Source: Spirodela intermedia (lineage: Eukaryota > Streptophyta > Magnoliopsida > Alismatales > Araceae). Taken from it: DNA of 64,000 bases. Below are positions 24-63,502 of this stretch, piece by piece; position 1 is the stretch's first letter, and each line of letters begins with the position of its first letter. The position numbers were made by a program, and so were the translations under genes. The stretch is taken from contig LR746278.1 in NCBI GenBank assembly GCA_902729315.2, positions 1,685,001-1,749,000 of the forward strand. Direction: 5' to 3'. The notes under the pieces are model-generated. The model worked only from the letters and a program-made list of their open reading frames with translations, ran no database searches and was not told where the DNA came from.

Positions 24-3000
24 TTACAGTAGTCGCTGCCTTTTCTTGGCAAGGTTCTCGAATATCCCCTGCACATCAGCGGACGTGATCGGTTTCGACG
101 GATCGAAGGATTCCTGGACAAGAAAGCAAGTAGCCCCCATGAGATCCTGATAAAAAAGACAGGCTTTTCCAGTGGATGCATCACGTCAGAGATACTGGGA
201 AGAATATATAGGAACATTTTCAGATCATCGAGTGACCATTCGGCATGAACTGCAGCAGAACAGAGCAGAGAGAAAATACCATGAAGGACTGGAGCTCATT
301 CTTCATGTCCGTAATGCCATTGAGGATTTCAATCTTCTGGACGTGATTCAGGGTGTTGAGGAAGTTCAACTCGGCTCCCTCTTGCTCCTGCATCTTCTCC
401 TGCCTCTTCCTCTTCGCAATATTCTCATACTCCTCAAGGGAGTCCTCCCTGTCAATAAGATGGCTGATGCCTTTCTTGGCGTAGAACTCACTGCAGGCCC
501 TACATTCGCAGAGGGCATTTCTCCACTTTTTGGACAGAAACATGGGCTTCTTCTCCTCGCTCAGGGACGTCTCATCCAAGTTGACTCCAAGAACACACTC
601 CGTACACGACCCTTTTCCCTCAACACTACCCTTGTCCGGGCCCATTTCCTTTCCCGACTTCTCACCCTGAAAAGCATCATCATTCACCCTTGGCCCATCA
701 CCGTTCACCTCAGATCTCACTGGTGCCTGTACCCTAGACGGTGCCCAGATGGAGGCAGGGTACAGATTCAAGAAAGAACAAGGCACAGAGCAATTCTGGC
801 AGATAAACTCGTCATACAAGGGCTCTCCTTCTTCATCTCTGGGGACCTGCGGGAAAAAAGGAGTTGCCAATTAAAGAAAGCCCGACAAGAGGATGCAAAT
901 GCACACTTGCATGAGCTCAACATAGAAGCAGATCTAATCACGCACACAAAACTCTACAGAAAGGACTTCCATTGATATCTAGCAGGAGCATGGGGTCAAT
1001 TTGAGAGAGTTTCAGAAGTAGCCCTCTCATCATAGAAGCAATTTACGGTACCTACATATATATATATATATATGTATGTGTATAAAAGGAAAATGGCAGG
1101 GTTTCGAGGGAGTGGGAGGAGGAAACCTCTCCTGAAGAGCAGAGACCGAGGTGGTTCTCGTGGAACCAGTCCTCGCAGATGCAGCATTGTATCATTTCAA
1201 CCTGCTCTTCCGCCTCCGGGTCGGGGTAGGGCCGGCCGCATATGCAGTAGGAGCCCTTGAAGTTGTGGTTGTACGAGTTCCCAATGTTCTCTGGGTCCTT
1301 GTTCGGAGAAAGTTTGCAGGAGAAACCCCCAAACTTTGAGTTTCCACAATCACACCTGAAATTCCTCTTCGTCCACAACTCCACGACCTGGTCCAGCCAG
1401 AAGAAGTTCAGGTCAACAACTGGTTTTCAAGTACATATCTTCACAAGGAACACACATGAAAACTAATGAACACAGACTGGGCATAAACCGCGACAAAGAT
1501 ATGGAATCTACGAGTGAAGCAGGCTGAAAAGCTTCTACACGCCAGAAAGTTGAAAATGGCGCCTTGCGTAGACATCCATTCACTGGTTGCAGATAATCTA
1601 AGATAGACCATAGAAATGGTACACCTCATAGGAAAGGAGCCTGGAAGTACTATGCCTTGAAGTTTTCCAAGAGAGAGGGATACGTCCAGCTCACGGGAAA
1701 CCAAAAAGAAAAAAAACTAGCAAGCTTCTAACGCAGAAATAGAGATCAGCCTAAGTTCGATCTACGCATTTGACCATGGGGAATTGGCATTTTCTCTCTT
1801 CACATGAGCACTCCTTCAGCTCCCATATCTGTTTTTTTTGCTTGCTTCTGATACATCAGTTTCTGAATCAACGTCCTTCAATGCACCGTGGTCTGATATA
1901 TCAGTGCCATCACAATAATTGGCATACACAAAAAGGACGCATATATATGACTCACAAAGATGAAGCAACCACAAAATCCTTCCAATTCAGATTTACAAAA
2001 TATCTTTCCGCACACAAACGTGCCTCCAGAAAACCTCTTCGTTCTTTATTTTTACCAATTTTCGATAAAAAGGAGGAAAACTAAAGGTTCAGTAGACAAC
2101 CCTAGTCTACATCTTCTGGCCTGGGCACAAGAATCGCTCTGTCAACATCAGTACTGTTAGCAGAAAACCAGCTGATCCAGTCCTACTTCTTTCCTATCCA
2201 GATCTGTATCCATCCTTTTCTAATGCAATCAAAAACTAGTCAGCCCTGATCATGAAAAAACTGCATGGACTCCGAATGCACTGCATCTAACTCAGAGCAA
2301 GTTCAGTTGGCTGAGGCAGAATGAAGGCTACAACTTTATCGACACGAGTTATTAAATCAGATAAGAGTATTTAGATGAACAACTATGTGGCACGAGAACA
2401 AACCCATATCTAGAATAAATTGATTCCCTGTCAATCGACATCTCCCCCTTCTTCCCAGTCAATTCTTTTTTTTTTTTTAACACAACACACACATGATCAT
2501 TAGCTGAGCCAGAAATCGACAGGTTTGGGGATTAGCATTTGTCATGAGAATCCTGCATATCTGAATAGGAGAAATTAGGATAGGAAGACAAAATAATGCT
2601 CGATTGACCTGCTGCAGAGAGAAAGAAAAAGAAGATATGATTAGGGTCATCAACCCAAGGACCTTGGGCTCGCGGTTCTTCCAGAGATCAGTTCCGTGAG
2701 ATATTTATCGCTGTTTATGTGGCTTCTGATAACCCATACCCCACCAAGATAACCGACTTCCAAGCTCAGAAAGCACAAACCAGATAGTGGTTCAGTTTTC
2801 CTTTTCTTTTTTTCTCCTTCTTTTTCTTCCAAGGTGGAGATGGCATTGTATTTAGCAGACAAGGGAACACAAGAAAATCCTTGGGTACCCCCAATGAAAT
2901 AGACTAGAAGCAACCAAGAAGCTTATCCCAAAGAGAGCAGCCATTGAAGAGGAAAGCATATCACTCCACTGCCCTCATAAAGACCAGTAATCGTATATAC

Positions 3001-3722
3001 GAAACCAAAGAGGTGCCCCGATATGCCAGCTAAATAGGATCGAAGCAGTTTCGGAAGAGCCGACAATATAAAGCAGAAATGCGCCTACACATCTGACAAC
3101 CGGTTGAGTAACATCAAATCGCTCTCCTTTGATTCCATTTCTTCTGCAAATTCTCCTACAAATGGCGACTTTACGTTTCTCTACGATCGAGAACAACGAA
3201 GGCGCTGGGTTAAAAGGAGAATGAGTTCGCCGTTTCTTTCTGGCTTAGTGGGATGTGCTCAGCTCTCCAACGAGGAAAGTTTAAATGGCATCGGTGAAGC
3301 TGTGCTATGGTCGAAATAAGAAACCAGATTCAGGAGGGCAGATGAGGAATAAGAGAAGAACGAGGAGGAATATGGTTTATACCTCGTGGCCGTCATGACA
3401 GGATAGACTACAGGCGGTGCATACGCCGGCGCTGCCGTCGGGAACACACGTCAGGCATGAGAACACTGCTTGCCTCTTCATGTAGCCGTTCGGATAGGTG
3501 CAATCCTTTCCCTCATCCCCTCCGAGAACCAGATCAGCTTCCTTCAATCCCCAACAATCAGAAGTTCAGTTCAGCTAAATTGGGGGAAATCGATAGCAGC
3601 ACATCACCAAATTAAGAACCGGCGGGGCGGATGATGGCTACCAGCTCCTCCGCCTCGAGGCCCTCGATGTACTCATTGATCGTCATCGTCGGCTCCACTT
3701 CGTCCGCGAACGCGTCGGCCAT
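24..3722 (-). CDS. UBR7: UBR7-like E3 ubiquitin ligase (UBR box plus PHD-like finger)
   Basis: Five coding exons on the minus strand: 3722-3642, 3541-3383, 1387-1127, 846-280 and 113-24, all in phase, giving 385 aa. Residues 28-80 form the first part of a UBR-type zinc box with many Cys/His (CLTC, CTACSLSCHDGHE); exon 3 continues it (NFRCDCGNSKFG) and runs into a PHD-like finger (CICGRPYP, CCICEDWFHENH) that ends in exon 4 (FICQNC). Exon 4 also carries an acidic Lys/Glu-rich stretch, and the last exon ends in a basic tail. The family is known as UBR7 (At4g23860 in Arabidopsis), a single-subunit ubiquitin ligase acting in the nucleus; in animals it modifies histone H2B. The start at 3722 matches the family N-terminus; an in-frame ATG at 3821 would add 33 residues of unlike composition. 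Intron 2 is about 2 kb. The acceptor before 3541 has a weak pyrimidine tract. Function rests on homology. Confidence 0.92.
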
Positions 3723-4044
3723 CTCGTGAGATTGAGGGCTCGCGGAGGAAATCAGAGATCGGAGAGGTTCCTCACCTCCTAGGCGCACAATCGGGCTACA
3801 AAAGGAACATAGCGTCCGCAAACATGAACGACAGAGGGAACAAAAACCCTAACCGGCTGATTCATTCCCCCCGCCTTTCCCAAAAGGAGAGGAAAGGTCT
3901 TGAGAATGAGTACCTTTCTGGGCTCCTATGGCGACCAATCGTCGTGTAGAAGATGATGGGGAGGCTTCCTGACCAAGATGACGCCCACGCGAAGCGTCCC
4001 TCTCCGGAAACAAAGTTCTCCGCCCCCGCTGCGCGCATCCACTG

Positions 4045-4076
<32 letters not shown>

Positions 4077-4835: not shown

Positions 4836-7078
4836 TTATTTCGTAGGCTTGGCCAGCAGCTTCTTGGGTAATTTGTCGACGGGGATTGACTTTAGGAGGA
4901 AAAGCCTGGCGGCTCGCTCTTGTAGGGTTCCACCGCACTTCAATCCATGCGCCTGCAGTTCTGATTTCAACCTCTCCATGCCGAGAACCTGCAGACGGCG
5001 CCGGCGATGTTAGCCATGATCTATAGACAATAATAAACCAAAGAGAGTCGAAATAGCGGTAGGAGTGTAGGCCAATACGCGCCAATTTAAATAATTCATC
5101 CACATGGAGGGAGCATCTGGGCAATGAAGTTGATTGAGATTCCAAGGGTGGACCATTGGGTGGGTTTCCGATGTTCCTCCTCCGAAATATAGAGTAGAGG
5201 AGGTGCTGACTAAGATATTCACTCCCATGACAGGCCCACAAAAGAGCTATCGGTGTAGAAGCCATGCTTTGACTCCAATCAAGTAGTCATCATGCACAAA
5301 TTAAAGTTAAGATGTATAAAGAATGTGACCACCTGATCGGATACATCTAGCATCTACAGAGGTTTGAGTGTGATCCGGGTATCCATCCATATGACTTAGC
5401 AGCGCAACCATTCCGTATAATTAGAGAAACCTTGCTTTGGTTAAGGAATGAAAGAGAATAGAATTTTCACAAACATGTTACGAGTGCCACTTGGAGCAAT
5501 GCACTCCAGTTTTTCTGTTTTAGATGCGGCGATAAGCATACATCAATGGGAGTCATGTAAAAAGCCGATCGAGAGATAGAAAACACAAGTATATGTGACG
5601 ATCTGATATATGCCATAAATTGCCGATCAAGCAATGATGGAATTAGGGAACAAACATCAAGGAATAGTTATAGCATCAATCGACGTGCACAAACCTCCAA
5701 TTCTTCTGCAGAGTTAAATTCCTCGAAGTTCAATGGCTCATTTGATTTCTCATCCTCAATCCTCTCTGGGGCAGCTTCTTTCAGAACCACTGAATCTCCT
5801 ATCACAGCACAGGAGACATCTAGAGTTTTCTCAGGGGAGTCAGGCGATACTTCTGGAGACAAACTCATTCTTTCCTCGGCGTCTATTTGCTTTTGGTCCA
5901 CTATTTGATCGCCAACCAACCTCTCCTCTAAATGAACCTTGTCAGAGCCTTGTGATGTCGCTGGGAGAGAAACGTTCTCTGTCTGGTCGCCATATTCTTC
6001 AAAAGATGTCCTCACAGGTTCCGCAGAGTCATCAGAACAAACATTTTCATTTACAGGGCCTTCGCTCACATCCAGGCACTTCTGATTAGGCACACTATCT
6101 TCTTCCTCCAAATTGCTCTTTCCAGAACCTCCATCGGAACCTTCCAGATCTGACTGACTACTGGATGTTGCAAACAAACCTGCATCATCTTCATTCTTGT
6201 TTCCACCATTAAGAACCACAGACTTCTCGGCATCGTCGTCATCCTCTTCGTCGTCCTCACTTTCACTTTCATCCACCTTCTTCTTTCCCATCCTGCATGA
6301 TCGAGACATAATCCATTTAAATGATACAAAGTGAATACGACGGAAACCAATGTTTACGAATAGGAAAAAAGTAAGCATGGGGGGTAAGGAACTGAGCATC
6401 AGAATTAAATCAATGGATCGCAATGGTCCGCAGAAAAATAAATCCAATAGTTTACCATATCTTTAGGCGCTTTAATGCAGGCCCTGATGAAGGCAAAACC
6501 TTCCGTTTCGATTTCTCGTAGAGTTCAAAGGACTGGCGCACAGACTCTTCGACCTCTTCCATGCACCTAGCAGAATCCTCCTTATACTTCTCTATGTATT
6601 TTTCCACGACCGCTGATGAACTCTTCTTAACCTCCTTCGCCTTGCTTTTAAGGAACTGCTCCGCGAGTTTTTCCATCTTCCGATCCTCGGCCTCCGCCTT
6701 CCACTCCTCGAGCTTTTTCTCCGCATTGACATGTCGCAGGCGCCGCCCGCTCATGTCCCTGCACGCATCGAAGTTGTTCGTCTTCTTCTGCCCTGCTTTC
6801 GTTGCCGCGCCCCTGAGGAGGGAACCAAATCCACCTTTCCCGCCGCGGAGGCGGAGGAGAAGGCTGCAGGAAGGAAAAATCCCATCCTCGGATGCTGATA
6901 TCAGGGTTTCATCGCGAATCTCGCGCAATCCAGACACCAATCGCTGAAAGCGGAGGGGGATCCCGGTTTTCGCCAATAGATATTCCTTCAGCGCCTCCCC
7001 GGAGAGCGTAGCGGAAGGAACCGGTAGACAATGGGTCCTACCGTCCAGGAGCTTGACGAAGATCTGGCTCCTCTCCAT
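4836..7078 (-). CDS. SDE2: SDE2 homologue (ubiquitin-like N-terminus, splicing and genome-stability factor)
   Basis: Three exons: 7078-6456, 6292-5695 and 4988-4836, phases consistent, 457 aa. Residues 1-80 form a ubiquitin-like fold ([18 protein letters not shown]) ending in a Gly-Gly-Lys-Gly-Gly motif at about 79-83, the site where family members are cut by deubiquitinating enzymes to release active Sde2 beginning with Lys. The conserved Sde2 core follows ([21 protein letters not shown], then a basic coiled coil). Exon 2 is acidic and low-complexity ([15 protein letters not shown]). The last exon encodes a SAP-like DNA-binding helix pair ([19 protein letters not shown]) and a basic tail. 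Known roles: intron-specific pre-mRNA splicing in fission yeast and replication-stress response in human cells. The plant protein is nuclear by inference. The Arabidopsis homologue, as I recall it, is At4g01000. Confidence 0.93.
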
Positions 7079-11250: not shown

Positions 11251-13634
11251 CTACGAGCAGCCGCCGCGTGGCGTCGGCCGGGGGCGGCGGAGTTCCACCA
11301 CCACAGCGGTCACGTTGTCGGCGCTTCCGCGGAAGATGGCGAGCTTCACGAGCAGCGCGGCAGCGGCCTCTGCGCCTGGGGCTCGGCCGCTGGCGAGGGA
11401 GCGGCGCGCCACCGCGCAGGCCAGCTCGTTCGGCACGACGTCCCACAGCCCGTCGCTGCCCAGGATGAGGAACTCGTCCGCTTCTGTGCGAGCCGTCACG
11501 GTCACCTCCGGGTCGGGGATCACGTACGGCTTCAAATAATGATCACCTGCACCCATTTGAATAACACAGTTGGAGAAGAAAGACCTTATTCTCTCTCTCT
11601 CTCTCTATTTCTCTCTGTATGGGGTGTGGAGGATTACCGATGGATCTGGAAGTAGCGAGGACGCCGCAAACGCGGAGGCCGCCCCAGTCGAAGACCCTGC
11701 CGCCGGCTGCTTCCACTCGTTCCCTCTCGTCCGGCCTGCCGGGCTGGGTGAAGAAGGAAGCTTGGTTACGGCCATGAAGGAACGCAGAAACATGAGTGTG
11801 AACGAGGAAGAGAGCAAGAAGGGAGCTTTTGGGAAGATCTGTGACGAGGGAGGACGAGAAGACGATAAACCCGGCGGCTAGGAGACGGGCATGCGAAATA
11901 AGTAGAGAAGTCCGCGGCGTGGAAGTCGTAGACCCACAGGGAGGAGATTATTATAACGTGGACGGCTGCATTCATACAGGATTGTCTCCGCTGAGGTGCT
12001 AGCCAACAGAAGAACGTATCCCACATCAAGAGATTATCAGCTAAGCCAAACACATTATAATTCTTCAAGAGAAGTCAACCCATGCATTTCTTCAGTTCAA
12101 TTTCATAGGTCTCTGGAATAATTAGGCAGGAAATAGTTGATAAAGTTTACAGCATGATCGACAGCGTAGGTCAACCCTGAATCTCATTCAAGCGGAACTC
12201 CAAATTCTCCTTGACCGTATGAGAAAGGAAATTTAAAAAAAAAACTAGAGTTGGCCTTGGAATCCTGAGAGATTATCAGATTTTTGGTCAATCGGAGCGC
12301 TGAAAAAAGTCCTTTAGACCTTCCCAAATTGATGAGTGATACGTTGAATTCAAATTTGACTCACGAGACACTTCAAGTCAACAATTGAAGAATGGCCAAG
12401 TCAACAAGCACGATCACATGAACAAGCAGTTGACTAACCCCTCGGAGACCAACTAGATTATTAATCTGTTCATGGGTGCCCACCTTCGTGCATGATGATA
12501 AGTTCTGCCCCCAACCAAACTACAACCACTGGATCCTTCACTGATTAATTTTCTCCGATATCAGACGACCGAATGAGCAGATAAGAAACGAAGGAAGATC
12601 GAGGAAGGCGACGCAACAGAGTAAACTCCAAATGCGAATCGACGATTGTTCATTCCTAAGAAACGGAAGCAATGATGTCGGCAAGCTTCTGGCTTTCTAG
12701 ATTTGTGAATCTTTACTGGACTTCCGGGGGAACAGTCGGAAACTCGCGAAAAAATTCAAGATCGGTCTGATGCAGATGAACCTCCCTGTTTCCTCCATTG
12801 TATTTGTGGAGAACAAGGTAGATTCATCTTGCTGTCGTCGCACAGATTGTTCGTCCGATTCAAGAATGGAGATGGAAATGGCGGCACAGAGAGATGATAC
12901 GTGTCGTCGGGATCCGCCCTTACCTTGTGATCAGAAGAAAGGGGAACAGGCACGCCCCCTCGCGAGAGCACGGCCCTTGAGTCCCCGCAGTTCGCCACCA
13001 TGATGCACGCCACCCCGACCACCGCTACCAGCGCGGTGGAACCCACCATCCTCTCCGAATCCGACCCGGTGATGGCCCGCGCCGTCACCTCCTCGTCCAC
13101 CTTGAGGAAGCAAGTCTCCATCGCCTCTCTCCACTCCATCTCCGACACGACGGACCGAGTCTCCATCTCCCCCGCGAGCAGCGCGTGCAGCCGGTCCCTG
13201 CAGGCGTGGGCCACGCTCGCGCCGCCGTGGCCGTCGAACACGCCAAAGAAATCGTACCGTGGCCCTCCCAGCGACAGGAACGCCGGCGCCAGCGTCACCG
13301 CGTCCTCCATCTCCCTCCTCCTCCCGATGACCGACACCGATCCGTGGGACACGCAGGGGACGGCGTCCCCCGGACCCGCCTCGGCAGCCAGTCGCGTCCG
13401 ATCAGAATCCGACTTCGGCGACGTTGCAGAGGAAGAAGAAAGAGAAGATGAAGACGAAGAAGAAGACCAGGACTCAAACGATGAACCAGGTTCCGTGGCG
13501 GACTCCGAAAAGTCCTCTCCATCTCCTCCATTACCACTCCTCCCTCGTATCGAGAGAGAGCTCACCGCTCTACGTCGGCGAGTGGATCCCGTCGATGGCC
13601 TCGATCTCATGGTGGAGGCGCCTTCCGTCTCCAT
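11251..13634 (-). CDS. Clade A protein phosphatase 2C (ABA co-receptor type)
   Basis: Three exons: 13634-12924, 11743-11638 and 11546-11251, giving 370 aa. Residues 1-90 are a Ser-rich leader. The PP2C domain follows with all Mg/Mn ligands: Asp in RRREMEDAV (104-112), FGVFDGHGG (to 138), [11 protein letters not shown] (about 303-313) and [12 protein letters not shown] near the end. The flap reads [20 protein letters not shown]; its Trp257 aligns with the tryptophan lock of HAB1 (W385) that touches ABA through the receptor, the mark of clade A. In the family these enzymes dephosphorylate SnRK2 kinases and are inhibited by PYR/PYL-ABA. Departures from consensus: PGRPDE for PDRPDE, and ATSRS for AMSRS in the flap. 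Its closest subgroup (PP2CA/HAI or ABI/HAB) cannot be settled by eye. ABRE/CE3-like sites lie 320-480 bp upstream. Confidence 0.93.
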
Positions 13635-14502: not shown

Positions 14503-15769
14503 CTAACTTTTCTCCTCCGCTGTGAAATCGGGCTCGGCGGGCTTCTGCAGCAGAATCGCGGGCAGCCTCTCCGGCAGGCGGGCTCTTCGGGGGTCGTTGC
14601 GCCGCAGGTTGCGCAGTGCGTTGACGGCGAAGCGCGAGGCGTAGATGGTGGCGGCGAGGCTCGGGGAGCTGCCAGCCTCCTGCGAGATCACCGCCTGCAA
14701 CCTGCCCTCCTTCTCGTGCAGCGCCTCCTCGTCCTTCCTCCGCGTGTAGCGGCGCCAGGCGGCCTGTATGAAGCAGGCGGCCCAGGTCCTCCACTGGTGC
14801 GAGTAGAACCGGAAGGTGTGGCGGAGCTGCTTGCTGTGGAGGCGCCGGAACTGGGAGGCGACGAACTTGAGGTCGTCGGCCACGAGAGCGAAGGCTTCCA
14901 CTTCGGTGAGGGCCTTCACCGTCCTCGTGGAGGAGGGGAGGTTGGAGGACGAGTTAGGGTCAAGGGCCCAGGTGAGGAGCTCCTCTCCGCAGAAGTCACC
15001 CCCCTTGAGAAAGTCCGCGTTGAAGAAGCCGGTCCTCCCGCCGTTGGTCGTCGCGCTCTCCAGCGTCCCCCGCATGATGAACAGCATCTCGTCCACCGGG
15101 TCCCCCTCCCGGACGATGATGCTGGATCCCGTGTACAGGACCGGCTTTAGCCTGTCGCACATCGCGTCCATCAGCTGGTCGTCCATCTTCTCGAACATCG
15201 GCACCTGAAGAAAGTCAACAACAAGATCATCGCGTAAGCTCTCCTCTTCCTCCGCGCTCATGGGGAAGTGTTTCAGAATAAGGGGAGGGGATTCTCACTC
15301 TGGTCAGCAAGGCTAAGCAGAGATGGCGCTTTATTTCCCTCCGAAGGTCCTTGGGGAGGTTCTGAAGCAGGTTTTCTTCGTCAACCCCTCTGGTGACCTG
15401 CCATCTGTACTGCTCGTGGCGGCGTATCCGGTCCCGCAGCTTCTCGGGGAGCAGGCGATGCGACATCCATTGATCGGTGTCCCGCCTCTTGATTCTCATC
15501 TCTTCGATTCTTACGGTGGTCGATTGAAGATAAGTCTGAGAAGAAAAATGCGGCAAATTAGCAAGCTCGCGCCATCCGGGGGCCTGTGGAAGAAAAGGAG
15601 CGACCGGCATTCTTTTCAAGGAATCAAAACGGCAGGTAGGGTGCGGTCCTTGTTCTTGTGATTCTTAACACGCCAAGCTATTTGTGCAGCAGAAGTCAGG
15701 ACTTTCGTGCTCCCTCACTCCCCAGAGATAACTCCACAGCTGCGGTGTTAACGGCTCGGGAGTGCGCAG

Positions 15770-15803
<34 letters not shown>

Positions 15804-18800
15804 ATTATAACCTCCTCTGGATGAAACCCATTCTCTCTCTCGCTCTATCATATGAGTACATGACTTCGGCTACGTTCCTTGCTCCCCTTGGCAGATATGG
15901 TAAAAGCCATGCCGTAAATAGTGTTGAATCAGAGTCAAAAGAGAAACGCTGAAAGCTTTTCGTTGATTGCAACGTTCGAGCGCTAATGAGCTTGATGCAT
16001 GCTCAATGTGATTACGAAATAATCAATATTCGCAAACTTAAATAGGAAGGGTAGGGTCTCAATTTCCGAAACAATATCCCGGTGAACGGAATGATTTTCA
16101 TGCTTACTATGAACGCACAAGTTTTTCCTAGATGTAATTTTAATGCATGGAGAAGCAAAACAAAGTGATTCGTGCAGGCATTTACCTGCATATTCCCGAT
16201 TAAGAGGGAGAACAAGACCAAGCCAGATATGGAAATGACCACAGCAAAGACATTCTCCCAAACGTAGGTGCTTGTTTTCAGATTTTGGCCAAGAGAACTG
16301 CAAGACATAATACATAATAATGAAATTAATGAGCTAAGAAAATACATTCGGTAAAAACTATGTATAATTTTTTTTTTATTTCATTTTTTCCCTAAGCTGA
16401 CAGGAGGCTAATCCCACTCTAACATGTCTCCGAAACAGAAAATCAAGAATGTTCACGGGTAGATCCTCGATGACCACCGAGTTTTCTCAGAATTCAATCT
16501 CAGATCTTATTCTCGTTTGTTCTGGGTCTATCCAACAGGTTTTGCAGCTTAACGCCGCTGAACTTAGCTTCTCTTGACCCTCGGGCCTAGACATTCACCA
16601 GGAACTCATATCCCCCATGGGTTGTCCGCCGCAGAGTATCATGTGATCCGTAGAGTATGTTGAATATGGGAGACAGTGGTCATCTAACCCTAACGGATCT
16701 TCTATCTTTCCTGTGTTTTTCCATTCCCACATGTTCTCCTCAGAAGGGCCTCAGCCAGCAATCGGTTTGACGGTCAAACTACTGAGGCTTAGATTTAAAT
16801 CACATAAAATGTGGACAGTCAAACTATGAAGCTTAGTTCTGACATAAGTAGGCACCCAAATGGTCTTAAAAAATAAAGGAAACAAGATAGAGGAATCGCG
16901 CTCACCTCAGGTTCTGTAGCCCCCACCAAAGGCAGTAAAACAACTTCTCGGCAAAATCTTTCGATTGGACATCATTCTCGAGGCCAGGAAGATAAATGCC
17001 AAAGTCAAAAGCCGACGTGTTGACTGGATTTATGGGACATGAGAGCGTTAAAAAGTCCTTGTTTTCTTGCGGATTCTCCCCGCAGTACAAAGACCGCACG
17101 CAGTCGTGGCCATCTCTACTGCACGCATCTCTCCAGCATGTATCTTGCCGTTCTATTGAAAACAAGTACCAAACAGCTCCCAAAACCTAACCAAAGAGTT
17201 TACAAAAATTGAGTAAAAAATAAAGTTGATTTATTTTAAAAAAAAAATATCAACATCAGAACTTGTATTAGTATGGGTATCATCCACTTTCCTTTTTTAA
17301 AAGTGCATACCTCAGTGTAATAAAGTTTCTGACCATAATGGTCGATGCGATGTACAGCACATGAAAGATCAAAATTTATCATTTTGGATATCTTTCTCTT
17401 TAAAATAATATTTCAAGTATTTTACTCTTCAATAAAACAGCTATCAAGATAGCTACAAGAAACATATTAAGCCAATCGCAAATCTTTGCTGTCACTCTTA
17501 TTGATGCATTCACCATTTTTCTTTTGGAGGTTGGACGCTTTTTTAAGTCAAAGTAAAAGCGGGCAATTTAAATATCAGAGAACTTCATTATCAATCCATG
17601 GTTTCAAAAGTGTTGCCTAGGCAAAGATCCATCAGTGGACAGTTGTGGTCATGAGTGCCGTCCTCACTAACACGGAGCATACGTGTTGCTGTGCATAAAC
17701 ATCTTGCAAGGAGGCTCCTCTTTGAAGAGCATGGGTAAAATTACTATGTTTCTTTTTAAAGCCAAAAATTACACAATGTGCAGGCCTATGATTGGTTTGT
17801 GGGGATTATTCTTTTCAAAATTTCATGTTCTATCTTCTCCTTCTTTTTTCTAGGCAGAAAATAGACAAGGGAAAATCAACATATTAACATATTTGCTTGC
17901 TTTTGTTTCCTCAGTTATCCATGGCCTACTGGCAAAAAGATGAAAACTTCCTCTAAATAGCAGATGAATAAACCCTAAGAATATACTGGTTACTTGCTAA
18001 AATACTGAAAAAAACTCTTAACAGGATAAAAAGAAAAAGAAAAAACTAGCTTTTACATGATGATATTCCATCAGAGTGAAGGAGCATGATATGTGCTTAA
18101 GAGCACATTCTCGTCTACCCTTTCCGTTTCTTTTACTTTATTAAATTCACTTTCACTAACTTGGTCCTCCTTTTCCTCTTGTAACTTTTACGACTGAAGT
18201 CATCCACCTCGCTAGATCTCTAGATTTCGCATTTCCTCCTTACAAAACCTTAACAATAATAATCGAACTATAAGCTACCACTCAAAATTTGAGACAAAAT
18301 TTATAAGACGTGCCTTGTAGTTCATCAGTAGGCAAGTCAGAGATTGTACACACGAAAAACTTCAGAGTTTAAAATAATTTTCACAAACAAATCCTAAAGG
18401 ATATTGGTACTATTTACGTTAATAATCAAATAAACCAGATTACAACGCTTCACCAGCCTAGAAAGAAGAATGAAAGACAATTTTTGGGATTTTTAGAGTG
18501 AGAATAATTAGTTAAGAATCAGGTGGTAATAATTTCATCAAGAAAAATAGTACTTGGATACAACATGCCACAATCGTAAAATAAAAGTTGGAGATAAGTC
18601 AACACTTACATGACTTGCAAGCATGTATAGAATGAGATTGAAAGCAGCCCCTGCCCATGCTGTTTGAGTTATTATGCCCGAAGTTCTTGTCACTTCTCGG
18701 TATAGTGGTATAATCCGAACAAGTCGAGGCAAATATTGGAATATGACAATAAACATCAGCAAGTTTTTTGCATTCACTGTTCTTTCTCCGCTCACTTTGG

Positions 18801-31324: not shown

Positions 31325-31356
<32 letters not shown>

Positions 31357-34580: not shown

Positions 34581-34581
<1 letters not shown>
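33280..34581 (+). CDS. PYL8: PYR/PYL/RCAR abscisic acid receptor, PYL8/9 subfamily
   Basis: Three exons: 33280-33381, 33817-34032 and 34351-34581, giving 182 aa, a usual length. Two introns are typical of the PYL7-10 subfamily; most other PYLs have none. The START-like fold is complete: Lys29 in RIKAPVHL (contacts the ABA carboxylate), [17 protein letters not shown], the gate loop SGLPA at 73-77, [12 protein letters not shown], the latch HRL at 103-105, [20 protein letters not shown], and the C-terminal helix [20 protein letters not shown]. With ABA the closed gate docks onto clade A PP2Cs and blocks them, releasing SnRK2 kinases; this subfamily is monomeric and partly active at low ABA. Cytosol and nucleus by family knowledge. 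The start is the first of two adjacent ATGs; an in-frame ATG at 33091 would add 63 unlike residues. The tail [12 protein letters not shown] is unusual. A (TC)n tract follows the stop at once. Confidence 0.97.

Positions 34582-36187: not shown

Positions 36188-36189
<2 letters not shown>

Positions 36190-36218
<29 letters not shown>
36190..36218. repeat. (GA)n microsatellite
   Basis: About 14 GA units in the PYL-FTSH11 intergenic stretch. Confidence 0.95.
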
Positions 36219-36221
<3 letters not shown>

Positions 36222-46200: not shown

Positions 46201-49200
46201 CCACATTCTCAACGATCATCTTTACACTAGAGGTCCCAAAGAAGTTCCTGAAAGGCACACGAAGTCAGTAAGATGTATCTGAAAGATTTCATATCTCTAG
46301 CAAATCCTCTGACTCTGGAAGAGCCTAGGCAGCAGAATTAAATTATACTACAATTAGGCCTTGCAACCACCTCTGGAAGGCAGGCACGTAAGAAATTTCC
46401 GAGTATTACAAACTCCAGGCCTTATCAACGACTCGTCCCACACATGATGAAAATTTGATTAAGACATTATTTACAGCTTATTCCAACTAGAGTTCCCAAT
46501 CCAATGCAACATTATCGAGCATGCAAACATCTAGTCAACACATTGTTTCCACTCAACTATGAAAGGTCGTCTTTATTCAGACCTTGATGACCTATTTTGG
46601 AGTAGTTTTGAGAATCTTCAGATAAATCGAGTAATTATATAATCAACTCCCAGATGTAATGCTTGTATCTTGTGTTCTAGAAAAAATAAATATATCACAA
46701 GTTAAGGTAAGCCATAACATTTAAGCCCAACGTTTTTCAGGGAAAGAAAAGAACCATTCGGAGAAGTTATACGCATTCGATTATTTACTTAAATTGCAAA
46801 ATAAAACTTGTGGGCGTGTATCAACAAAAAAAAATTCATCTTCCATATTGCACAAATATAACCGTTACCGAGTTTAATTTAAGAATACAAAAGAGAAGTG
46901 CAAACATGACCCCAAAAAAACAATTAAGGGAGAACTATGGCATACCACATTAACCCAATTACAATTGTAAACAACACTGTGGACATAACTTCTTGTGCAA
47001 ACTTTGTAGATCTATTCGAGGATTTAGGGTCAACCTATAAAAGGAAAAAAACATATGTAAGATAAGAGTAAGAACTATAACATAAATAAAGGGTAACAAC
47101 AATGACAATGGTCATTGTTGAAAAAGTTTAAGAGGATATCTTATGTATCATACAGCAAGAAAGCTTTGAGAACTTAGAGGATCAGTTCCATCTTTACCAT
47201 CACTACATGCAACGGTTGCTTATCAGATATGCCCGGATTCAAGAATTGATCATCCACGTTCCCTGATGCACGTTGCTTCAGCTCTTGCAACTACTGACAT
47301 GAAATAATTGCATATAAGGTCAGTGACAAGTACTCAAATAACACCAAGAATCAAATAATGAAAGTAAATAAGGTCTTTTGAATCATACACCAAGAACCTA
47401 GATATCCTCAAGGAAAGAAGCGGATAAGCAACCAGACAAAGGTCAGGCTCCCTATGCAGAAAATATTGGTAATTGTTTCGTACAGTTTTTTTGTCAACAT
47501 GTGATGTTTTGACGCTCAAATTTTCTCCTTCAATTCATCAAAGATCATGCCAAACTGTTTGAATATCATGAGAAATAAGGCAAACTTCTCCCATCGTCAC
47601 GTGCTACATATTAATATTTTTTTATAAGGGTAGGAAATTCCAGATACATAGAGATTTAAGACAAATCATTGCGTGTAAAGGAGCTTTGGGTCATCGAGGT
47701 CAAACAAAGTCTCTCTCCAAGTGTTGGCAATCCCATAGACACCAAAAAAAACATTAATTTGATATGGGGATAACTCTTATGATTTTGGCCACCAACCAAA
47801 TTTTTTTGCAGAACGAGTACTCTACATAGAAGAAAAATTACCAAAAAGAAAGTCTCATATTTAAAATACAAATTACAACACTAGCAGTGAGCTAGAATAT
47901 TTCTAGCAGGGGGATAGAACAAAGAAAGCAATTAGCAAGAACCAAGTCATCTATATTAAGAACTTCGCCTAGTTTATTCTTTTCTCATCCCGAAAACTAT
48001 AAGGCATTCCTGTGATAGCTAATTTGTTTCACCGCCCAACACCCTGGATGAAGTCATAATTTCCATTCGATGATGCAGTCAGAAACTCCCCCTTCATTAG
48101 CGTGGAACCCTCCAACAAATGTGTCAAGAACCATCCCCTTAACACATCCACACACAAATGAGAGATTAGGAAACCCCACTACTGGCAACCTTTTGGAGGA
48201 TTATTTTTATCAAAAGTTGGGTTAAAACCCCTCCTTATCTGTGGTAAATGGAAACACAGGATGAACGACCAATGAGGTTAAAAACCTCAACTGGCGAGAT
48301 CAAGCCCTCCCCCTCACCCCAAAAAAAACTTGTGGCCCAACTCTAAGGAACTATCTTCTTCCTCAATAACCAAAGAATGAAACCAGAAAGACAGAAGATA
48401 CTCTTCTGCATCCCAAATAAAAGCAGCAAACAGAAAATCAAAGTAGAATTTGAGTCCGAAGGGTTCTTTCAAAAGGTTCTTTACACCTCAGATAGGCTCT
48501 CCTGTTTGCAGGAAAAAACCGAACCCCAGAAGAGTATTCCAAAAATCACATTGTTACACACTTCACCAAACTTAACCAATAAGCGCAATACATTCACACT
48601 AGAAAATGATGATCAAACAAAACATGGATCCGGCAGATCAATACGTGCAAATTACTAAGGAAGAACTCCCAATAAAAGACACTGGACATAAAAAATAAAA
48701 TTCAGGCAAAACGACGTTAAAGACTTCAAGCATCAAACCAAATACGAGGCTGCAAAAGCAAAATTGCAAAGAGACAGTAGAGATAAAAGTTATCTTACTA
48801 GCAATGGAAGCCTCGAAGGTCGTCCAGATTGTTCATCAGGTAAGTAGTCAGCCAAAGCATTAGTAATGACAAGGGCACGGATATACTCTGCCACTCCTTT
48901 GCTATCTACTTCATGACTTCTTTGGTCAAAACGTTCTATCACAGAGTCAGGGCTGCCAAAAAGAGGACATCCATTTTCACTCCGTTTTAAATGTGTCTAG
49001 AAAGTGATAACCTTCAAAGTAACAAGCACTCAAAAATCTCATAAGGAAGCTTGAAAGAACCGCAACAGAAAAAATTTGATAAGCTATGACTTCTGATATT
49101 ACACATCATAGTAGAATATGGAATGAAAACTTCATCCATGCAGAGAATAGAAATATCATCAACAACAACAAAAAGAAGAGAAATAGCAAAATTAGAGATG

Positions 49201-51523
49201 TACAGCAATCTTGGATCACAAATGAGATTTTTTAATGAAAGGAAATGAAGCATATCTCAAGAGGATTAGAGCAGTGCAATGTATTATGCCTCTCTAGATT
49301 GAATCAAGCCGAGACAAATTCAAAGTCAAATCAAACAAAAGCATGATAAAAATAGGAGCATCTTTACACTTGGCGAACTGGTAAAGATATTAATCCGTGA
49401 ATCTTCCGTAAGTTTCCCCAAAGGAAAAACGCCACCGAAACAAGGACGTCATGATTAACTTGAAGAGCTTTGGGGACATCCCAATTCAGTTCAGAACTAT
49501 GCAAGGCGCAGTGTAACCTTGGATGATTTCAACTGAATGTATAAGACAGGGAACCAGATTGAGCACGCCAGGTTTCAGCTCCATTCAAATAATCAATGCT
49601 GATAACAGCTGACAAACTGAGGGCTTTGTGTTAACATTCACATGCGCAGCCTTACCTTCTTCCTTCCCCAGTGAACTCTTTAGCACTGCTTCCTTTCCTG
49701 GAGTTTTACACCGAGTTGATTTCTCTGGGATGTGTCCATTTTTACAGATCGCAAATGTCAAATTCCAGCTGATGAAAAAAAGACACCAACAAACTTGAAC
49801 CCTCTTAAACACCTAAAACCACATGGGTGATTGCACGACCTCTCCCATGCAAAATATGTAACCTTGAGGACTCATATTAAAATTGATTTTTTTTTTAATT
49901 GTCGTGAGCACAAAGAATGGCCTCTGACCTGAAGTTTATTTTAACCATATAAACAACGGAGGAATTCTTTTGTATTACAACCAGCTTACTGTACAAAGAG
50001 GAAACTTCCCTGATTCCATGGAAACTGCCGCGTCCTCTGTCATCTCACTGGCACTACTCTTCCTTGACCTCCTTTCAAATGGCTACACAAGACTTATAGA
50101 CAGAGAAATAAGATAGGAAAGCAAGGATTGGCAGGAAAGTTGATCCATATAGTCTGTGCATAACCACAAAGCTCTATCCTCATGTGACCAATAAATAGTT
50201 AATGAAAACTCGCCCTTACCATCAGCACCTTTAGGAAACTCAAGTTCTTAACATTTGCACTGGAACTGCAAATGTGGAGGATCGTAGTCGAGATGGCGAT
50301 ATCAGACTAAAAACAAAAACAATCAACCCAATATCGTCATGGCTTCCTTGGCACCATTCCAAACCACTTTCATTGTCATTGAGCATGCCATGTCGACAGT
50401 TCTTTCCTAGTCCTTCTTTCAGGAACAGAATGAAGTAGTGGACATACATCCCATTGCTTTCCGGTTTACGTTCAAGAAGAAACAAATTTATACAAAATAG
50501 ACCATTCGGTTTAACAGTCTTAAGATTTGTGATGTAGATACCATGGGATCTTTGCGTGTCTGTAACTTGGCATTGGGAACCCTTCGTGATTTCCACACAT
50601 TTGATCCAGTCCGAGTGAAATAGGACAAAATAAAGAGTCCCGACGTTGATTTCCTAGTCAAGAAACCTGGATGATTGGTATTTTTGGCGGATGCTCGAAA
50701 ATGTAATTTCTTCCCTACCACAAGAAGTCTCATTACCATGTGTATCTCATGTGCATGCGTCAAGATATACATGATAGTTATGAAGGCCACTAGAACAGTA
50801 AAGAATACAGAAGATATAAATGATACAATAAACCAATGATAATGCACGAATAACGAAATTACGAAGAAATGGAGGGGCAGGGAATAAAGGAAAACAAACA
50901 AACCTAAACTTGTTGAGTTCAGCAAGCAAGGCACTTTGCTTTGCGGCATCTTTGGGATTAGCGTCGGCGTCAGCAATGAGATGCTCCAACCGCTTTTTAT
51001 GCCGCCACGGCCACCATCTTAACCAATCCACCTCTGGAAGGCCATTAAGCATCCCCCTTAACGTTTCTTGCAACCCCATCAAAAGCAACCCCAGCGACAT
51101 ATCTTTCCGTTCTCCCTGCACCTCTGATGGCTCAGAAGAGCCATTCACAGGTTCACCCTCTTCGACGCCAGCTACAACCTCAGTCGCATTCTCTGTGTCC
51201 TCTATCAGCTCCCTTCTTGAGCTCTCACCGGGTTTTGCCAGCAGAGGCACAGCCCCCTCTGGGTTCCCAAAATCAGAGGTGGAATCCGAGCCATTGGCCG
51301 CGCTTTCGGACGTCGAGCCGGCGTCCCCCGGCGTTAGAGCGTGCGAAACCAGGAAACCCAATCTGTTAGAACCGGGTTTGGAGAGAAGGACGGCAGGGAG
51401 GCATACTCGCCGTGGCGTGAATGCCGCGGCAACATGGGGCCGCTTTGGGAGATGACCCAACGTGGACTTGGTCCGCGAAGGAGAAGGCCTCCACAACAGG
51501 GAGGCCTGGAGAGCAGCGGGCAT
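37248..51523 (-). CDS. FTSH11: FtsH11-type ATP-dependent zinc metalloprotease (organellar)
   Basis: Seventeen exons, all in phase, 810 aa (Arabidopsis FTSH11 806): 51523-50904, 48952-48799, 47290-47198, 47034-46946, 45470-45347, 44661-44542, 42605-42555, 42390-42329, 40633-40576, 39877-39752, 39669-39589, 39334-39205, 38685-38536, 38436-38155, 38074-37985, 37913-37860, 37394-37248. The N-terminus ([19 protein letters not shown]) looks like a transit peptide. A membrane helix is at about 306-326 ([14 protein letters not shown]). AAA motifs: Walker A GAPGTGKT 406-413, Walker B IIFIDEID 461-468, second region of homology [20 protein letters not shown]. The protease zinc site is HESGH at 625-629, with the later Asp in [11 protein letters not shown]. 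FtsH11 degrades membrane proteins in chloroplasts (and mitochondria by some reports) and gives heat tolerance. ATG 51583 is an in-frame alternative start. Introns reach 2 kb. Confidence 0.96.
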
Positions 51524-52464: not shown

Positions 52465-54785
52465 ATGGCTTCTTCTTCCCCTCCTCGTCTACCCCACCCC
52501 TCGAAGCGTCGCAAGAAGAAGCAGGACGAAGTGGATGAGACTGTCAGATCTTCTGGAAAGAAGGCGCCCGTCGTAGTTTTTGCGCACGGGGCCGGGGCTC
52601 CGTCCTCATCTGAGTGGATGGTAAGGTATATTTCTGGTTATAATGCAGGAGGATTTTTGCTCCGTCAGACACTAGAACATGAGAAAAACGTGGAGTAGGT
52701 GTAGTTTATCTGCTGTTCTCTAACTTGATGAGTTATTCTTGAGCGTTTTCACGTCAGACTGCGACGCTTGATATTCTCTCTGTTTTGAAACCCCGCCGGA
52801 GCTGGGTTCGAGTTAGACTGAGTATTTCAATACATTTAGGAATTGTAACTTTCTAGTTTGGCTTAAGTAGGGTTTCCTCTCAGGGGGATAACGCTATTTT
52901 CTGTAGAAGGAGAGATAATCAAAACGCTTACTCTTGGGTTTCACTATACGTTTCACTATTTGCTTGCTCAGTAAAAATAAAATTGGTTGCATAAAATGCT
53001 AAGAAAAATCTCCGGTGACTGTCTTGTAGATGGAAGGAAATGCTACAAAAAGGGCTTCATGCCGCTGAAGTAATCGCATTTGATTATCCTTGTAAGTGAG
53101 GCAACGAGAAGCACTAGAGCTCCTTTGTTCTCGTCATTATACTAGTATTTTTCTATTATTAAAGCCTAGTTATCAAGATCACAGGCCGGTAATTTCAATT
53201 TTATTAAACAATAATAGTGTTCTTCACTGCATCTGCACTTTGAAATCTTTTAAAACCTCGTAAGATACTCATGGAATGAGCAATACTGTCAGACATGTCT
53301 GGTGAGAGGCGTAAAGCTCCTCCAAAGGCTGAAAAGTTGGTCGAATGCCACTTGAGTGTCATTAAAGCGGCTGCAGCAAGATACCCTGGGCATCCTCTGG
53401 TTCTGGCGGGGAAGTCCATGGGCTCGAGGTAAGTGGAACATTGTTCTCTGTATTTTTATTTAAAAAGAAACTCAAATTAAGCAGACGAGTTCTGGGTCAA
53501 ATATGGATGTATGTCGTTTAGAGACTCTGTGTATTAGATAGTTCTCTTGAGTAAAGTGTTGGTTGTACGAAAATTCATAGTGCTGCCTAACTTCAGAGAG
53601 TTCCATGGAAGGGCAATATTCTTCACATTTTTTCCTGTTATTATCAACTCTTTGATCCTTTTTGTTCAGGGTGAGTTGCATGGTAGCCAGTGGGGAAGAT
53701 ATCCATGTTGATGCTATAATTTGCTTGGGATATCCTCTAAAGGTTTGTTTTTTTTTTTCTCTTTATTCATTCACCTTCCTTCATTCTACGTTGTCATCTT
53801 CTACCACGCAGAAGATGAGTTGAAACAACCAACTTTCTTATTTTAATTTTCTGGCTGGATATTTTATGCATGATTAAAATTGAGACATCATGAGTTTATG
53901 CTTCAATGCTCTAATATGAGTCATTTCTCCCATGGCTTCTAAACTTGCACCGTAAATGATGTTATCGATTCCGATTTTTCTTTTCATTTTTTAACTTACG
54001 AAGCTCATTCAGTCGATAGGCTTTAACATTTGGATCACCTCTACTTTGATCTTCAATTAATCGGGTGAAAAATCCGATAAAGAGGTTTGAAAAAAATTCG
54101 AATAAACCAAGAGCATTCTCCCCCTCCTTTCCTCACTGAATTCGAAGCTCAAACGCCATTAATATTCGATGGTCCATCTCTGGTTATCTCCAGCTTTCTA
54201 GTCGAGAGGTCTACACGGCTTCAGCAGTTTCGTGGAATCATTTCTTGTCTCGTTTTTCTTGCTCTGCAATACTATACACCTTCAGTTCCTGGCAAGGCAT
54301 ACCGTAATCAACACTGTGTCGATGATATCAACCGTTGGGATGAGAAAATCATGGATTCAATTAAATAATGTCGATATTCATGTTCTCAATTTGCTTCAGG
54401 GTTCGAATGGTGCCACTCGTGAGGAGACTTTACTGCAGCTGACGGTTCCAACAATCTTCGTCCAGGTAGAGAGACCTTGTCCTTCCTCTACACTCTACTT
54501 ATCATCACCCTGTGAGTGATTCAGTGGTAATCCTTTCTTGGCAACTGAGGAGACGATTTATTCATGAAGGGTAGCAAGGATGTCCTATGCCCTCTTGACA
54601 AGCTGGAGGCGACTCTCAAGAAGATGAAGGCCGTTAATGAACTCTATGTCATCGAATACGGGGATCACTCCTTCAAGATCGGGAAAAAACACCTGCAGGC
54701 CAGCGGGCTTAGCCAGACCGAAGCTGAAGAGAAAGCAGTTGCTGCAGTCGCAGACTTTGTCTCAAGATCCACCCAAGAAAAGTAA
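52465..54785 (+). CDS. TEX30/KANL3-like alpha/beta hydrolase
   Basis: Six exons: 52465-52625, 53030-53091, 53293-53428, 53670-53742, 54400-54465 and 54570-54785, giving 237 aa in phase. After a basic Lys/Arg-rich start, the protein has the oxyanion-strand motif VVVFAHGAGAPSSSEWM, the nucleophile elbow AGKSMGSR (Ser116), IICLGYPLKG, an acid residue in GSKDVLCP (Asp170) and the catalytic-type His in YGDHSF (His199). This is a full Ser-Asp-His triad of a small alpha/beta hydrolase like animal TEX30; the substrate is unknown. Exon 1 uses a donor five bases after an earlier GTAAGG; only that choice gives Val-Arg-Trp-Lys and keeps the frame, as in the Arabidopsis homologue. The acceptor at 54569 has a poor pyrimidine tract. 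The basic N-terminus might target the nucleus. It is transcribed away from FTSH11. Confidence 0.88.
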
Positions 54786-61885: not shown

Positions 61886-61924
<39 letters not shown>

Positions 61925-62152: not shown

Positions 62153-62226
62153 ACCTCCGTCTCCCTACAGTGGGCAACCCCACTCCAGGCCGCTTCGTCT
62201 CCACCCTTCCTCTTCCTCGGGCCGCG

Positions 62227-62236
62227 CTTTATATCC
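62227..62236 (+). promoter_or_regulatory. TATA box of the WRKY gene
   Basis: The sequence CTTTATATCC would place transcription start near 62260, giving a leader of about 175 nt without an upstream ATG overlapping the WRKY frame from 62104. Confidence 0.5.
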
Positions 62237-62435
62237 CCATAACCATGGTCCCTGCAACTCCACGCCTTCATATCTCCCCCGGAGCCTCTTCCTCCTCCCG
62301 TCGTCTTCACAGCTCGGTGAAGAGAAGGATAACAACGGGGGAAAGGAAGAGGAAGCTGGAGACCTCTTTGTTTTCTGCACCGAGAGCTCGGAGACCGGCC
62401 GCCGCCATTCCCTCTGGTTCGCAAGCGCCCCGGCT

Positions 62436-63502
62436 ATGGAGAACGGCGTCGCCTGGGACCCCAGCCGGCTCATCAGAGAGCTGACGGACGGGCAGGAGCT
62501 GACGAGGCAGCTCGAGACCCACCTCGACCAGTCCCCACCCGAATACTGCAAGTCGTTGTTGCAGAGCATCCAGTCTGTCCTGCACAGGGCCACCTCGCTG
62601 GCCAAATCCTTGGCCGACTACGATGGCGGAGACTCCCCGCGCTCCGCCAGCGGCAGCGACGATTCCCGCCGCCCCGTCGCCTTCGGGGATCAGGACCCCC
62701 GGGAGATCTCCAAGAAGAGGTAGACCCTGTTCACAGCGCCGCCCATCCGCCGCCACTGCCGCTAGATTTCCGGGGGGAGAACTCACCGTCTTCGTCGTCT
62801 TCGTTGCAGGAAGATGTTGCCGCGGTGGAAGAAGCAGGTGAGGGCGAACCCGGGGACGAGCCTAGAAGGCCCGCCGGAGGACGGCTTCAGCTGGAGGAAG
62901 TACGGGCAGAAGGATATCCTCGGGGCCGCCCATCCGAGGTGAGCTTCCCGGCCGCCCTCCTCCTCCTCCGGCGACGGCGAAACCTCCACCTAATCCCGGC
63001 GAGCCGACTTTAAATCTGCAGGGGTTACTACCGCTGCACCCACCGGAACACGCAGGGCTGCCCGGCGACGAAGCAGGTGCAGCGGGCCGACGGCGACTCT
63101 TCCGTCTTCAACGTCTTGTACAAGGGGGAGCACGTCTGCACCCAGAGAGCGAACTCCTCGCCGATGCCGGTGCTGGAGCAGGGGCACAGCTTCGTCGTCG
63201 ACGGCAGACCAGGCCTGACTGTGATAACCCAGGAGCTGCCGCTGGCTTCTCCCTCATCCTTCTCCTCCATTCCATCGCCGGCGAGCCGCATCTTCTCCTC
63301 GCCGGCGACCCGCTTCTCGTCGCCGTTTGTCTCTCCCTCCACCGCCGGGAAAACCCACTTCGGGGAGGGGTTCCCCGGAGGCTGCCATGGCCGAGCTCTG
63401 GAAGAACTGGGGGAGATACTCTCAGCGTCCAACACCAGCTCACCGGCCATGGACCTGGAGTTCCTGGTGGACGTCGACTTCGACAACAGCTTCTTCACCT
63501 GA
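62436..63502 (+). CDS. Group III WRKY transcription factor (WRKY41/53 type)
   Basis: Three exons: 62436-62719, 62810-62938 and 63022-63502, giving 297 aa. The N-terminus (RLIRELTDGQELTRQLETHL, then a second helix) is the leucine-rich helical region of group III. A basic nuclear signal KKRKMLPRWKKQV precedes the WRKY domain: WRKYGQK at about 123-129, then a zinc finger with spacing C-x7-C-x23-H-x-C (CTHRNTQGC ... GEHVC), which is diagnostic of group III. The intron splitting the domain after the codon for Pro (within the Arg of HPRGYYR) is the conserved group III site. The C-terminal part is Ser/Pro-rich and ends acidic (LEFLVDVDFDNSF), a likely activation region. Group III members act in senescence, salicylate and drought or pathogen responses. 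The gene's upstream region is rich in W-boxes. It may correspond to WRKY53 or WRKY41; which one cannot be settled here. Confidence 0.95.

What the first reader, a model, noticed from the sequence alone, without database searches (positions are those of the whole stretch)
24..63502. Three separate Arabidopsis neighbourhoods are united in one interval: a likely ancestral gene order
Read from sequence, the order is UBR7, SDE2, LRR, clade A PP2C, CNGC1, PP2C, PYL8/9, FTSH11, hydrolase, TROL, WRKY-III. From memory of Arabidopsis loci, CNGC1-PP2C-PYL8-FTSH11 sit at At5g53130-53170, SDE2-CNGC13-PYL7-TROL at At4g01000-01050, and WRKY53-LRR-UBR7 at At4g23810-23860. The sets share CNGC and PYL paralogues, so they look like products of one duplicated block that lost different genes. 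Here the block appears whole, suggesting a lineage with few duplications or slow fractionation, such as an early-diverging angiosperm or monocot.
Basis: partly seen in the sequence, partly recalled or inferred. Interest (0 to 1): 0.75.

Follow-up and report, generated by a model that had tools for sequence, protein, structure and literature searches.

The report
Ancient flowering-plant gene block in duckweed
A short stretch of a duckweed chromosome still carries, side by side, eleven genes whose relatives lie scattered over several chromosomes in thale cress, so it is probably a well-kept piece of gene order from before monocots and other flowering plants parted; useful as a reference, but of a known kind.

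Summary
In detail: all 11 genes are present in the order given. The genome is the duckweed Spirodela intermedia, a monocot. Ancestral linkage is supported. In grape, the three genes listed as AtPYL7-10 orthologues lie 6-14 gene numbers from a group III WRKY. Of 50 species with at least two of PYL, UBR7 and TROL among the listed hits, 15 (this duckweed included) have two on one contig; control 0 of 18,927. Arabidopsis holds more than three pieces: SPA1-WRKY46-CNGC3/11/12 and WRKY41-SPA2 seem to belong too, and a SPA gene follows the WRKY 5 kb outside the window. The cause given, few duplications or slow fractionation, is not supported: a sister block on C17 has only PYL and WRKY of the 11, same order and orientation (dS 0.86 and 0.69). 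So this looks like the well-kept copy of a duplicated block. Amborella was not tested, and the full order was read in no second species. New member of a known kind.

The parts
27..3722 (-). UBR7 (UBR box + PHD-like E3 ligase), 5 exon blocks
   Evidence: one of 3 zf-UBR hits in the genome, the other two not classified
5671..7078 (-). SDE2 (ubiquitin fold + SDE2 domain)
   Evidence: PF22782 E 7e-26; the only match in the genome
8168..10304 (-). LRR protein (approximate limits)
   Evidence: LRR_4/LRR_8; exons
11254..13634 (-). PP2C, probably clade A
   Evidence: PF00481; best PDB matches are plant ABA PP2Cs at 7e-33 to 8e-23, human PP2Cs at 1e-12 and weaker
14506..21533 (-). CNGC, CNGC1-like, long introns
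26785..32154 (+). second PP2C (At5g53140-like by position)
   Evidence: PF00481; limits approximate
33280..34581 (+). PYL8/9-type ABA receptor; exons 33280-33381, 33817-34032, 34351-34581
   Evidence: splice model; 100% identical to S. intermedia P0002; PDB rice RCAR3 and AtPYL9
37251..51523 (-). FTSH11-type AAA/M41 protease
   Evidence: M41 E 7e-41, AAA lid below cut-off, exons; the FTSH11 subtype is recalled from its N-terminal exon
52465..54785 (+). alpha/beta hydrolase (Abhydrolase_11, TEX30-like by recall)
   Evidence: PF20408 in 3 exons, one above cut-off; the only match in the genome
55603..59399 (+). TROL (thylakoid rhodanese-like); may extend further
   Evidence: first 217 residues find no other copy, only a 31% match on C8
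62436..63502 (+). WRKY group III, zinc finger C-X7-C-X23-H-X-C
   Evidence: PF03106 in 2 exons; spacing

Best explanation
The window is a well-preserved copy of a gene block that was already assembled before monocots and eudicots separated. Later genome duplications copied the block in each lineage and each copy lost different genes, so the genes look dispersed in Arabidopsis. In Spirodela intermedia the block was duplicated too: one copy (C15, this window) has all eleven genes plus a following SPA gene; the other (C17:1.475-1.484 Mb) has only PYL and WRKY-III. Shown: gene content; the within-genome pair of segments; pairwise linkages in grape, rice and other species. Inferred: that the eleven stood together in one ancestor, that the C15/C17 pair comes from a whole-genome duplication, and that uneven gene loss rather than slow loss explains the intact copy.
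For: (1) Sister segment: of the open frames (30 aa or more) of C15:1675001-1769000 compared with C17:1400001-1550000 at E 1e-6, only those of PYL and WRKY-III match, collinear and in the same orientation (for the window at E 1e-4); dS 0.861 over 171 codons and 0.686 over 117 codons of three chosen conserved stretches; chance that a PYL lies within 10 kb of any of 36 WRKYs about 0.5% (36 SiWRKYs from PMC12741084). (2) Grape: the three genes that the passages of PMC5723141 list as AtPYL7-10 orthologues lie 6, 9 and 14 gene numbers from the WRKY-III genes of chr 2, 15 and 16 in PMC4563840, and PMC5968127 puts RCAR3, RCAR1 and RCAR2 on chr 2, 15 and 16; rough chance 3.5e-7 (gene total recalled). 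(3) Shared contigs (S. intermedia counted): PYL+UBR7 7 of 24 species, PYL+TROL 4 of 20, UBR7+TROL 7 of 26; equal lengths between different species 0 of 18,927. Tightest: Kingdonia PYL GIB67_006400 and UBR7 GIB67_006401 (903 kb), Tetracentron PYL and TROL five tags apart, Phoenix 812 kb, Ananas 560 kb; UBR7 and TROL 47 tags apart in Aristolochia fimbriata, a lineage without its own genome duplication. (4) Arabidopsis SPA1 At2g46340 - WRKY46 At2g46400 - CNGC3/11/12 At2g46430-50, and WRKY41 At4g11070 - SPA2 At4g11110 - AP2 gene At4g11140, against WRKY then SPA on C15 and WRKY with an AP2 gene on C17. (5) Rice OsSPA1 Os05g49590 and OsWRKY19 Os05g49620.
Against: 35 of the 50 species show no two of the three genes on one contig, although only the best 120 hits per gene were listed and many contigs are short. 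Several same-contig cases are whole chromosomes and weak one by one (Elaeis, Magnolia, Asparagus, Coptis, Dioscorea). Each cross-species link is pairwise; the full order was read in no second species. In rice the pieces are split (CNGC1-3 on Os02 and Os06, SPA-WRKY on Os05). No cross-species linkage was obtained for SDE2, LRR, the clade A PP2C, FTSH11 or the hydrolase. In grape, PYL chromosomes come from a second paper through an inferred match of gene names, that gene numbers follow position is recalled, and a further receptor, RCAR4 on chr 10, was not classified. The PYL tree pairs C15 and C17 only at 90/81; putting the window copy with Colocasia is not rejected (p-AU 0.254). CNGC copy number in this genome could not be searched.
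Confidence: 0.85

Rival explanations
1. Partly ancestral block: a core (UBR7, CNGC, PP2C, PYL, TROL, WRKY-III, SPA) is ancestral, while one or more of the clade A PP2C, LRR, SDE2 and hydrolase genes joined in the duckweed or monocot lineage.
For: None of the nine clade A PP2C loci listed for Arabidopsis lies in its fragments named here (the nearest is AHG1 At5g51760, on the chromosome of At5g53130 but well over a hundred gene numbers away); no cross-species linkage was obtained for LRR, SDE2, hydrolase or clade A PP2C.
Against: SDE2, LRR and hydrolase have plausible Arabidopsis neighbours by recall (At4g01000, At4g23840, At5g41850), which no call checked.
Confidence: 0.35
2. The genes came to this order by chance or by later rearrangement in Spirodela, and the union is not ancestral.
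For: Rice has the WRKY-SPA piece on another chromosome than its CNGC1-3 genes; 35 of 50 species show no shared contig.
Against: Repeated linkages in grape, Phoenix, Iris, Ananas, Kingdonia, Tetracentron, Nelumbo and Aristolochia.
Confidence: 0.03
3. Functional clustering: the block stays together because ABA receptor, clade A PP2C, CNGC and WRKY-III act in one stress pathway.
For: PYL and a probable clade A PP2C, known receptor partners, lie 20 kb apart.
Against: The C17 segment has PYL and WRKY but no match for the PP2C or CNGC; UBR7, SDE2, FTSH11 and TROL have no ABA role that I recall; Arabidopsis tolerates the dispersal.
Confidence: 0.04

Closest known systems
Conserved microsynteny of WRKY III regions (PMC4563840; passages and section 5 read)
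   Same: Uses WRKY III genes as anchors, including those of grape chr 2, 15, 16 and At2g46400, At4g11070, At4g23810.
   Different: [quoted passage not shown] Here a monocot, Spirodela, has WRKY-III in the PYL/CNGC/SPA context that grape and Arabidopsis show in part.
Arabidopsis CNGC-PYL paralogous segments (At5g53130/53160, At4g01010/01026, At1g01340/01360)
   Same: Same pair of families, neighbouring, in three copies.
Aristolochia fimbriata genome as an unduplicated angiosperm reference (PMC8445822; passages read)
   Same: UBR7 and TROL on one scaffold, 47 tags apart.
   Different: PYL, CNGC and WRKY positions there were not available.

Membership tests
Ancestral angiosperm syntenic block | Same genes linked in distant lineages | tested here: met
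   Grape: three listed PYL7-10 orthologues, each near a WRKY-III; 15 of 50 species with two of three markers on one contig, S. intermedia counted
Ancestral angiosperm syntenic block | Whole order conserved in a genome without lineage-specific duplication | tested here: inconclusive
   Only UBR7-TROL could be seen in Aristolochia fimbriata; no Amborella PYL or TROL among the listed hits
Ancestral angiosperm syntenic block | One-to-many relation to Arabidopsis | tested here: met
   CNGC, PYL, WRKY and SPA locus numbers; other numbers recalled
Duplicated (ohnologous) pair C15/C17 | Two or more genes in the same order and orientation | tested here: met
   PYL and WRKY-III
Duplicated (ohnologous) pair C15/C17 | Copies are sisters within the duckweed lineage | tested here: inconclusive
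   Support 90/81; alternatives not rejected, p-AU 0.254 and 0.463
WRKY group III | C-X7-C-X23-H-X-C zinc finger and WRKYGQK | tested here: met
   (the group III rule is recalled)
PYL8/9-type ABA receptor | Best matches in the PYL8-10 class, with intron-split gene | tested here: met
CNGC1-type (group I) CNGC | Closer to CNGC1 than to CNGC5/15 | tested here: met
   958 against 794 and 730 bits
Clade A PP2C (gene 4) | Falls in clade A on a tree | tested here: inconclusive
   No tree; only PDB ranking; the second PP2C also ranks ABA PP2Cs first, by a smaller margin

The most novel reading that the evidence does not exclude
The block is held together in one duckweed copy by selection on the cluster itself: an ABA receptor, a clade A PP2C partner, a CNGC channel and a WRKY-III factor forming a co-regulated stress locus, rather than by uneven gene loss alone.
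Probability: 0.04. Interest if true: 0.6.

Novelty: new member of a known kind. Interest (0 to 1): 0.33.

Why it matters
It gives a compact monocot anchor that may tie six separate Arabidopsis segments to one ancestral region, and puts the WRKY41/46/53 group, the PYL7-9 receptors and the CNGC1 group in one genomic context. That makes monocot-eudicot orthology of WRKY-III genes testable by position where trees are weak, and qualifies a printed finding of little or no such context between rice and dicots. The C17 segment, which lacks 9 of the 11 genes, would be a clean example of uneven gene loss. The phenomenon itself is well known.

Tried and rejected
Rejected: 'few duplications or slow fractionation' as the cause, because of the C17 segment. 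Rejected as proof: the PDB best hit alone for calling clade A, since the second PP2C behaves alike. Ion_trans hits were considered as CNGC paralogues; the window CNGC peptide gave no tblastn match at 1e-5 to loci L001-L008, so they were dropped, and CNGC copy number in this genome stays unknown. The first PYL tree (C15/C17 pair 92/90) had a wrong outgroup row (L010, wrong frame) and was replaced. A UBC-like reading on C17 got no Pfam hit and is not used. Paper searches that gave nothing; one search gave two papers not bearing on this; one search gave one, looked at. PMC3990689 and PMC12707978 held none of the terms sought. Novelty: searches are the only searches made for a description of this block; they found none, in open-licence papers only. 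Duckweed genome duplications: the paper wanted is not held, so they are recalled.
Full report
What is there. The window is G000:C15:1685001-1749000 of a 136.5 Mb genome in 32 contigs. The PYL protein is identical to Spirodela intermedia P0002 over the query's whole length, and the extra N-terminal residues of P0002 are in the window too. Genome size (136.5 against 136.6 Mb) and largest contig seen (C9, 13.40 Mb, against Si09, 13.4 Mb) fit S. intermedia clone 8410 (PMC7645714: outline, first part of Results and passages read); the contig lengths listed for the S. intermedia PYL proteins (5.278 and 5.229 Mb) are close to but not equal to C15 (5.275 Mb). It is a monocot, Alismatales, Araceae.

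Genes. Reading the open frames (the output was cut in the middle) and scanning 20 exon pieces (5 of 20 without a family) gives, left to right: UBR7 (-), SDE2 (-), LRR (-), PP2C probably clade A (-), CNGC (-), PP2C (+), PYL8/9 type (+), FTSH11 type (-), Abhydrolase_11 (+), TROL (+), WRKY group III (+). The PYL exons were solved. UBR7 and TROL exons agree with homologues from S. intermedia, Colocasia and Wolffia. The CNGC scores 958 bits with AtCNGC1, 794 with CNGC5. SDE2 and the hydrolase have one match each in the genome; the first 217 residues of TROL find only themselves and a 31% match on C8; there are 3 zf-UBR hits, of which one is this UBR7 and two were not classified.

Flanks. About 5 kb to the right starts a gene with COP1-type WD40 repeats and a kinase-like N-terminal part, read as a SPA gene (best PDB match COP1, 9e-69; SPA rather than COP1 rests on the N-terminal part and is recalled). 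Then comes a DUF1221 kinase. To the left is an F-box gene.

Within-genome copy. The other PYL locus with exons at 69-77% identity is C17:1,482,722-1,483,374 and the first exon beyond it (the remaining loci match at 49-58%). Comparing open frames of C15:1675001-1769000 with C17:1400001-1550000 gives matches for PYL and WRKY-III only (14 rows at E 1e-6), for the window alone at E 1e-4, adds a second WRKY at C17:1,403-1,405 kb that matches in the WRKY domain only. The two genes have the same order and relative orientation, 6.5 kb apart on C17 and about 28 kb apart here. dS is 0.861 (PYL, 171 codons) and 0.686 (WRKY, 117 codons of three chosen stretches). A PYL tree of 22 rows pairs the two at 90/81; pairing the window copy with Colocasia is not rejected (p-AU 0.254), nor is a trio with Colocasia (0.463). 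So the block was duplicated, probably in the duckweed lineage, and the other copy lacks nine of the eleven genes in the 150 kb examined. On C17 a DYW-type PPR gene lies between WRKY and PYL, and an AP2 gene beyond the WRKY.

Is the union ancestral? Grape: PYL genes GSVIVT01019517001, 01027078001 and 01028704001, given as AtPYL7-10 orthologues in PMC5723141 (passages), against WRKY-III genes 01019511001 (chr 2), 01027069001 (chr 15) and 01028718001 (chr 16) in PMC4563840 (section 5): each PYL is 6, 9 or 14 numbers from a WRKY-III. PMC5968127 (passages) has RCAR3, RCAR1 and RCAR2 on chr 2, 15 and 16, which fits; that these are the same three genes is inferred, and RCAR4 on chr 10 was not classified. 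The other three of six grape WRKY-III genes are on chr 8 and 13. That chr 2, 15 and 16 are related by the ancient hexaploidy, and that gene numbers follow position, is recalled.

Other plants. The homologue tables (best 120 of 1457, 1111 and 552) give the longest contig and often a locus tag. Two genes share a contig in 15 of 50 species that appear in at least two lists (14 of 49 without S. intermedia); by pair 7 of 24, 4 of 20 and 7 of 26; equal lengths between different species occur in 0 of 18,927 comparisons. The 15 are Phoenix, Elaeis, Iris, Ananas, Asparagus, Dioscorea, Wolffia and S. intermedia (monocots), Kingdonia, Coptis, Nelumbo and Tetracentron (basal eudicots), and Magnolia and two Aristolochia species (magnoliids). 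Chromosome-length contigs are weak evidence one by one; short ones are strong (Kingdonia 903 kb with consecutive tags, Phoenix 812 kb, Ananas 560 kb, Iris 2.8 Mb, Nelumbo 4.4 Mb). The other 35 show none, which with truncated lists and several paralogues per species is weak counter-evidence, told here in full.

Arabidopsis and rice. CNGC loci are from PMC5533464 (accession passage; also PMC6195792), PYL loci from PMC4839062 (table passage), PP2C At5g53140 from PMC2612031 (passage), WRKY-III loci from PMC4563840, SPA loci from PMC4091655 (passages), At4g11140 as an AP2 gene from PMC3485569 (passages). They give CNGC-PYL pairs at At5g53130/53160, At4g01010/01026 and At1g01340/01360, SPA1-WRKY46-CNGC3/11/12 at At2g46340-46450, and WRKY41-SPA2-AP2 at At4g11070-11140, besides WRKY53 at At4g23810: six segments, not three. 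In rice OsSPA1 (Os05g49590) and OsWRKY19 (Os05g49620) are neighbours, while OsCNGC1-3 (group I by recall) are on Os02 and Os06: the block is split there. Locus numbers of FTSH11, TROL, SDE2, UBR7, the LRR gene and the hydrolase are recalled.

Mechanism. The most likely history is: block formed before the monocot-eudicot split; copied by each lineage's genome duplications; different losses per copy. Shown are the copies and the pairwise linkages; the single ancestral order and the timing are inferred. The clade A PP2C is the least secure member of the ancestral set: none of nine Arabidopsis clade A loci lies in these segments, and its clade was judged only from PDB ranking.

Known and new. Conserved blocks of this kind are common knowledge in plant genomics. 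PMC4563840 reports little or no microsynteny of WRKY III regions between rice and dicots and none for VvWRKY52; the gene numbers compared here put VvWRKY52 near a PYL gene, as in Spirodela. No description of this particular block turned up, which cover open-licence papers only.

Noticed in passing
C15:1753423-1761652 (L036:4423 to L038:2652), right of the window: SPA-type gene (kinase-like part, COP1-type WD40) follows the WRKY; may extend the ancestral block.
   Followed up: yes
C17:1469249-1483802 (L025-L027): Sister segment: AP2 gene (CRF-like by recall), WRKY-III, DYW PPR, PYL8/9; the PPR beside PYL recalls At4g01030 beside PYL7 (recall).
   Followed up: partly
window 11254-13634 and 33280-34581: A probable clade A PP2C and a PYL8/9 ABA receptor, partner families, lie 20 kb apart.
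   Followed up: partly
window 14506-21533 and 37251-51523: CNGC and FTSH11 genes span 7 and 14 kb, with long introns in AT-rich sequence.
   Followed up: no
L038:3405-5519: Long single-frame DUF1221 protein kinase right of the SPA gene.
   Followed up: no
L038:8808-9374: Plastid-division PDV-like start of a gene, by eye only (no Pfam hit).
   Followed up: no
UBR7 hits: Grass UBR7 tags lie on Setaria chr 4, Paspalum chr 10 and Zizania chr 6, which by recall match rice chr 6, where OsCNGC2/3 lie.
   Followed up: no
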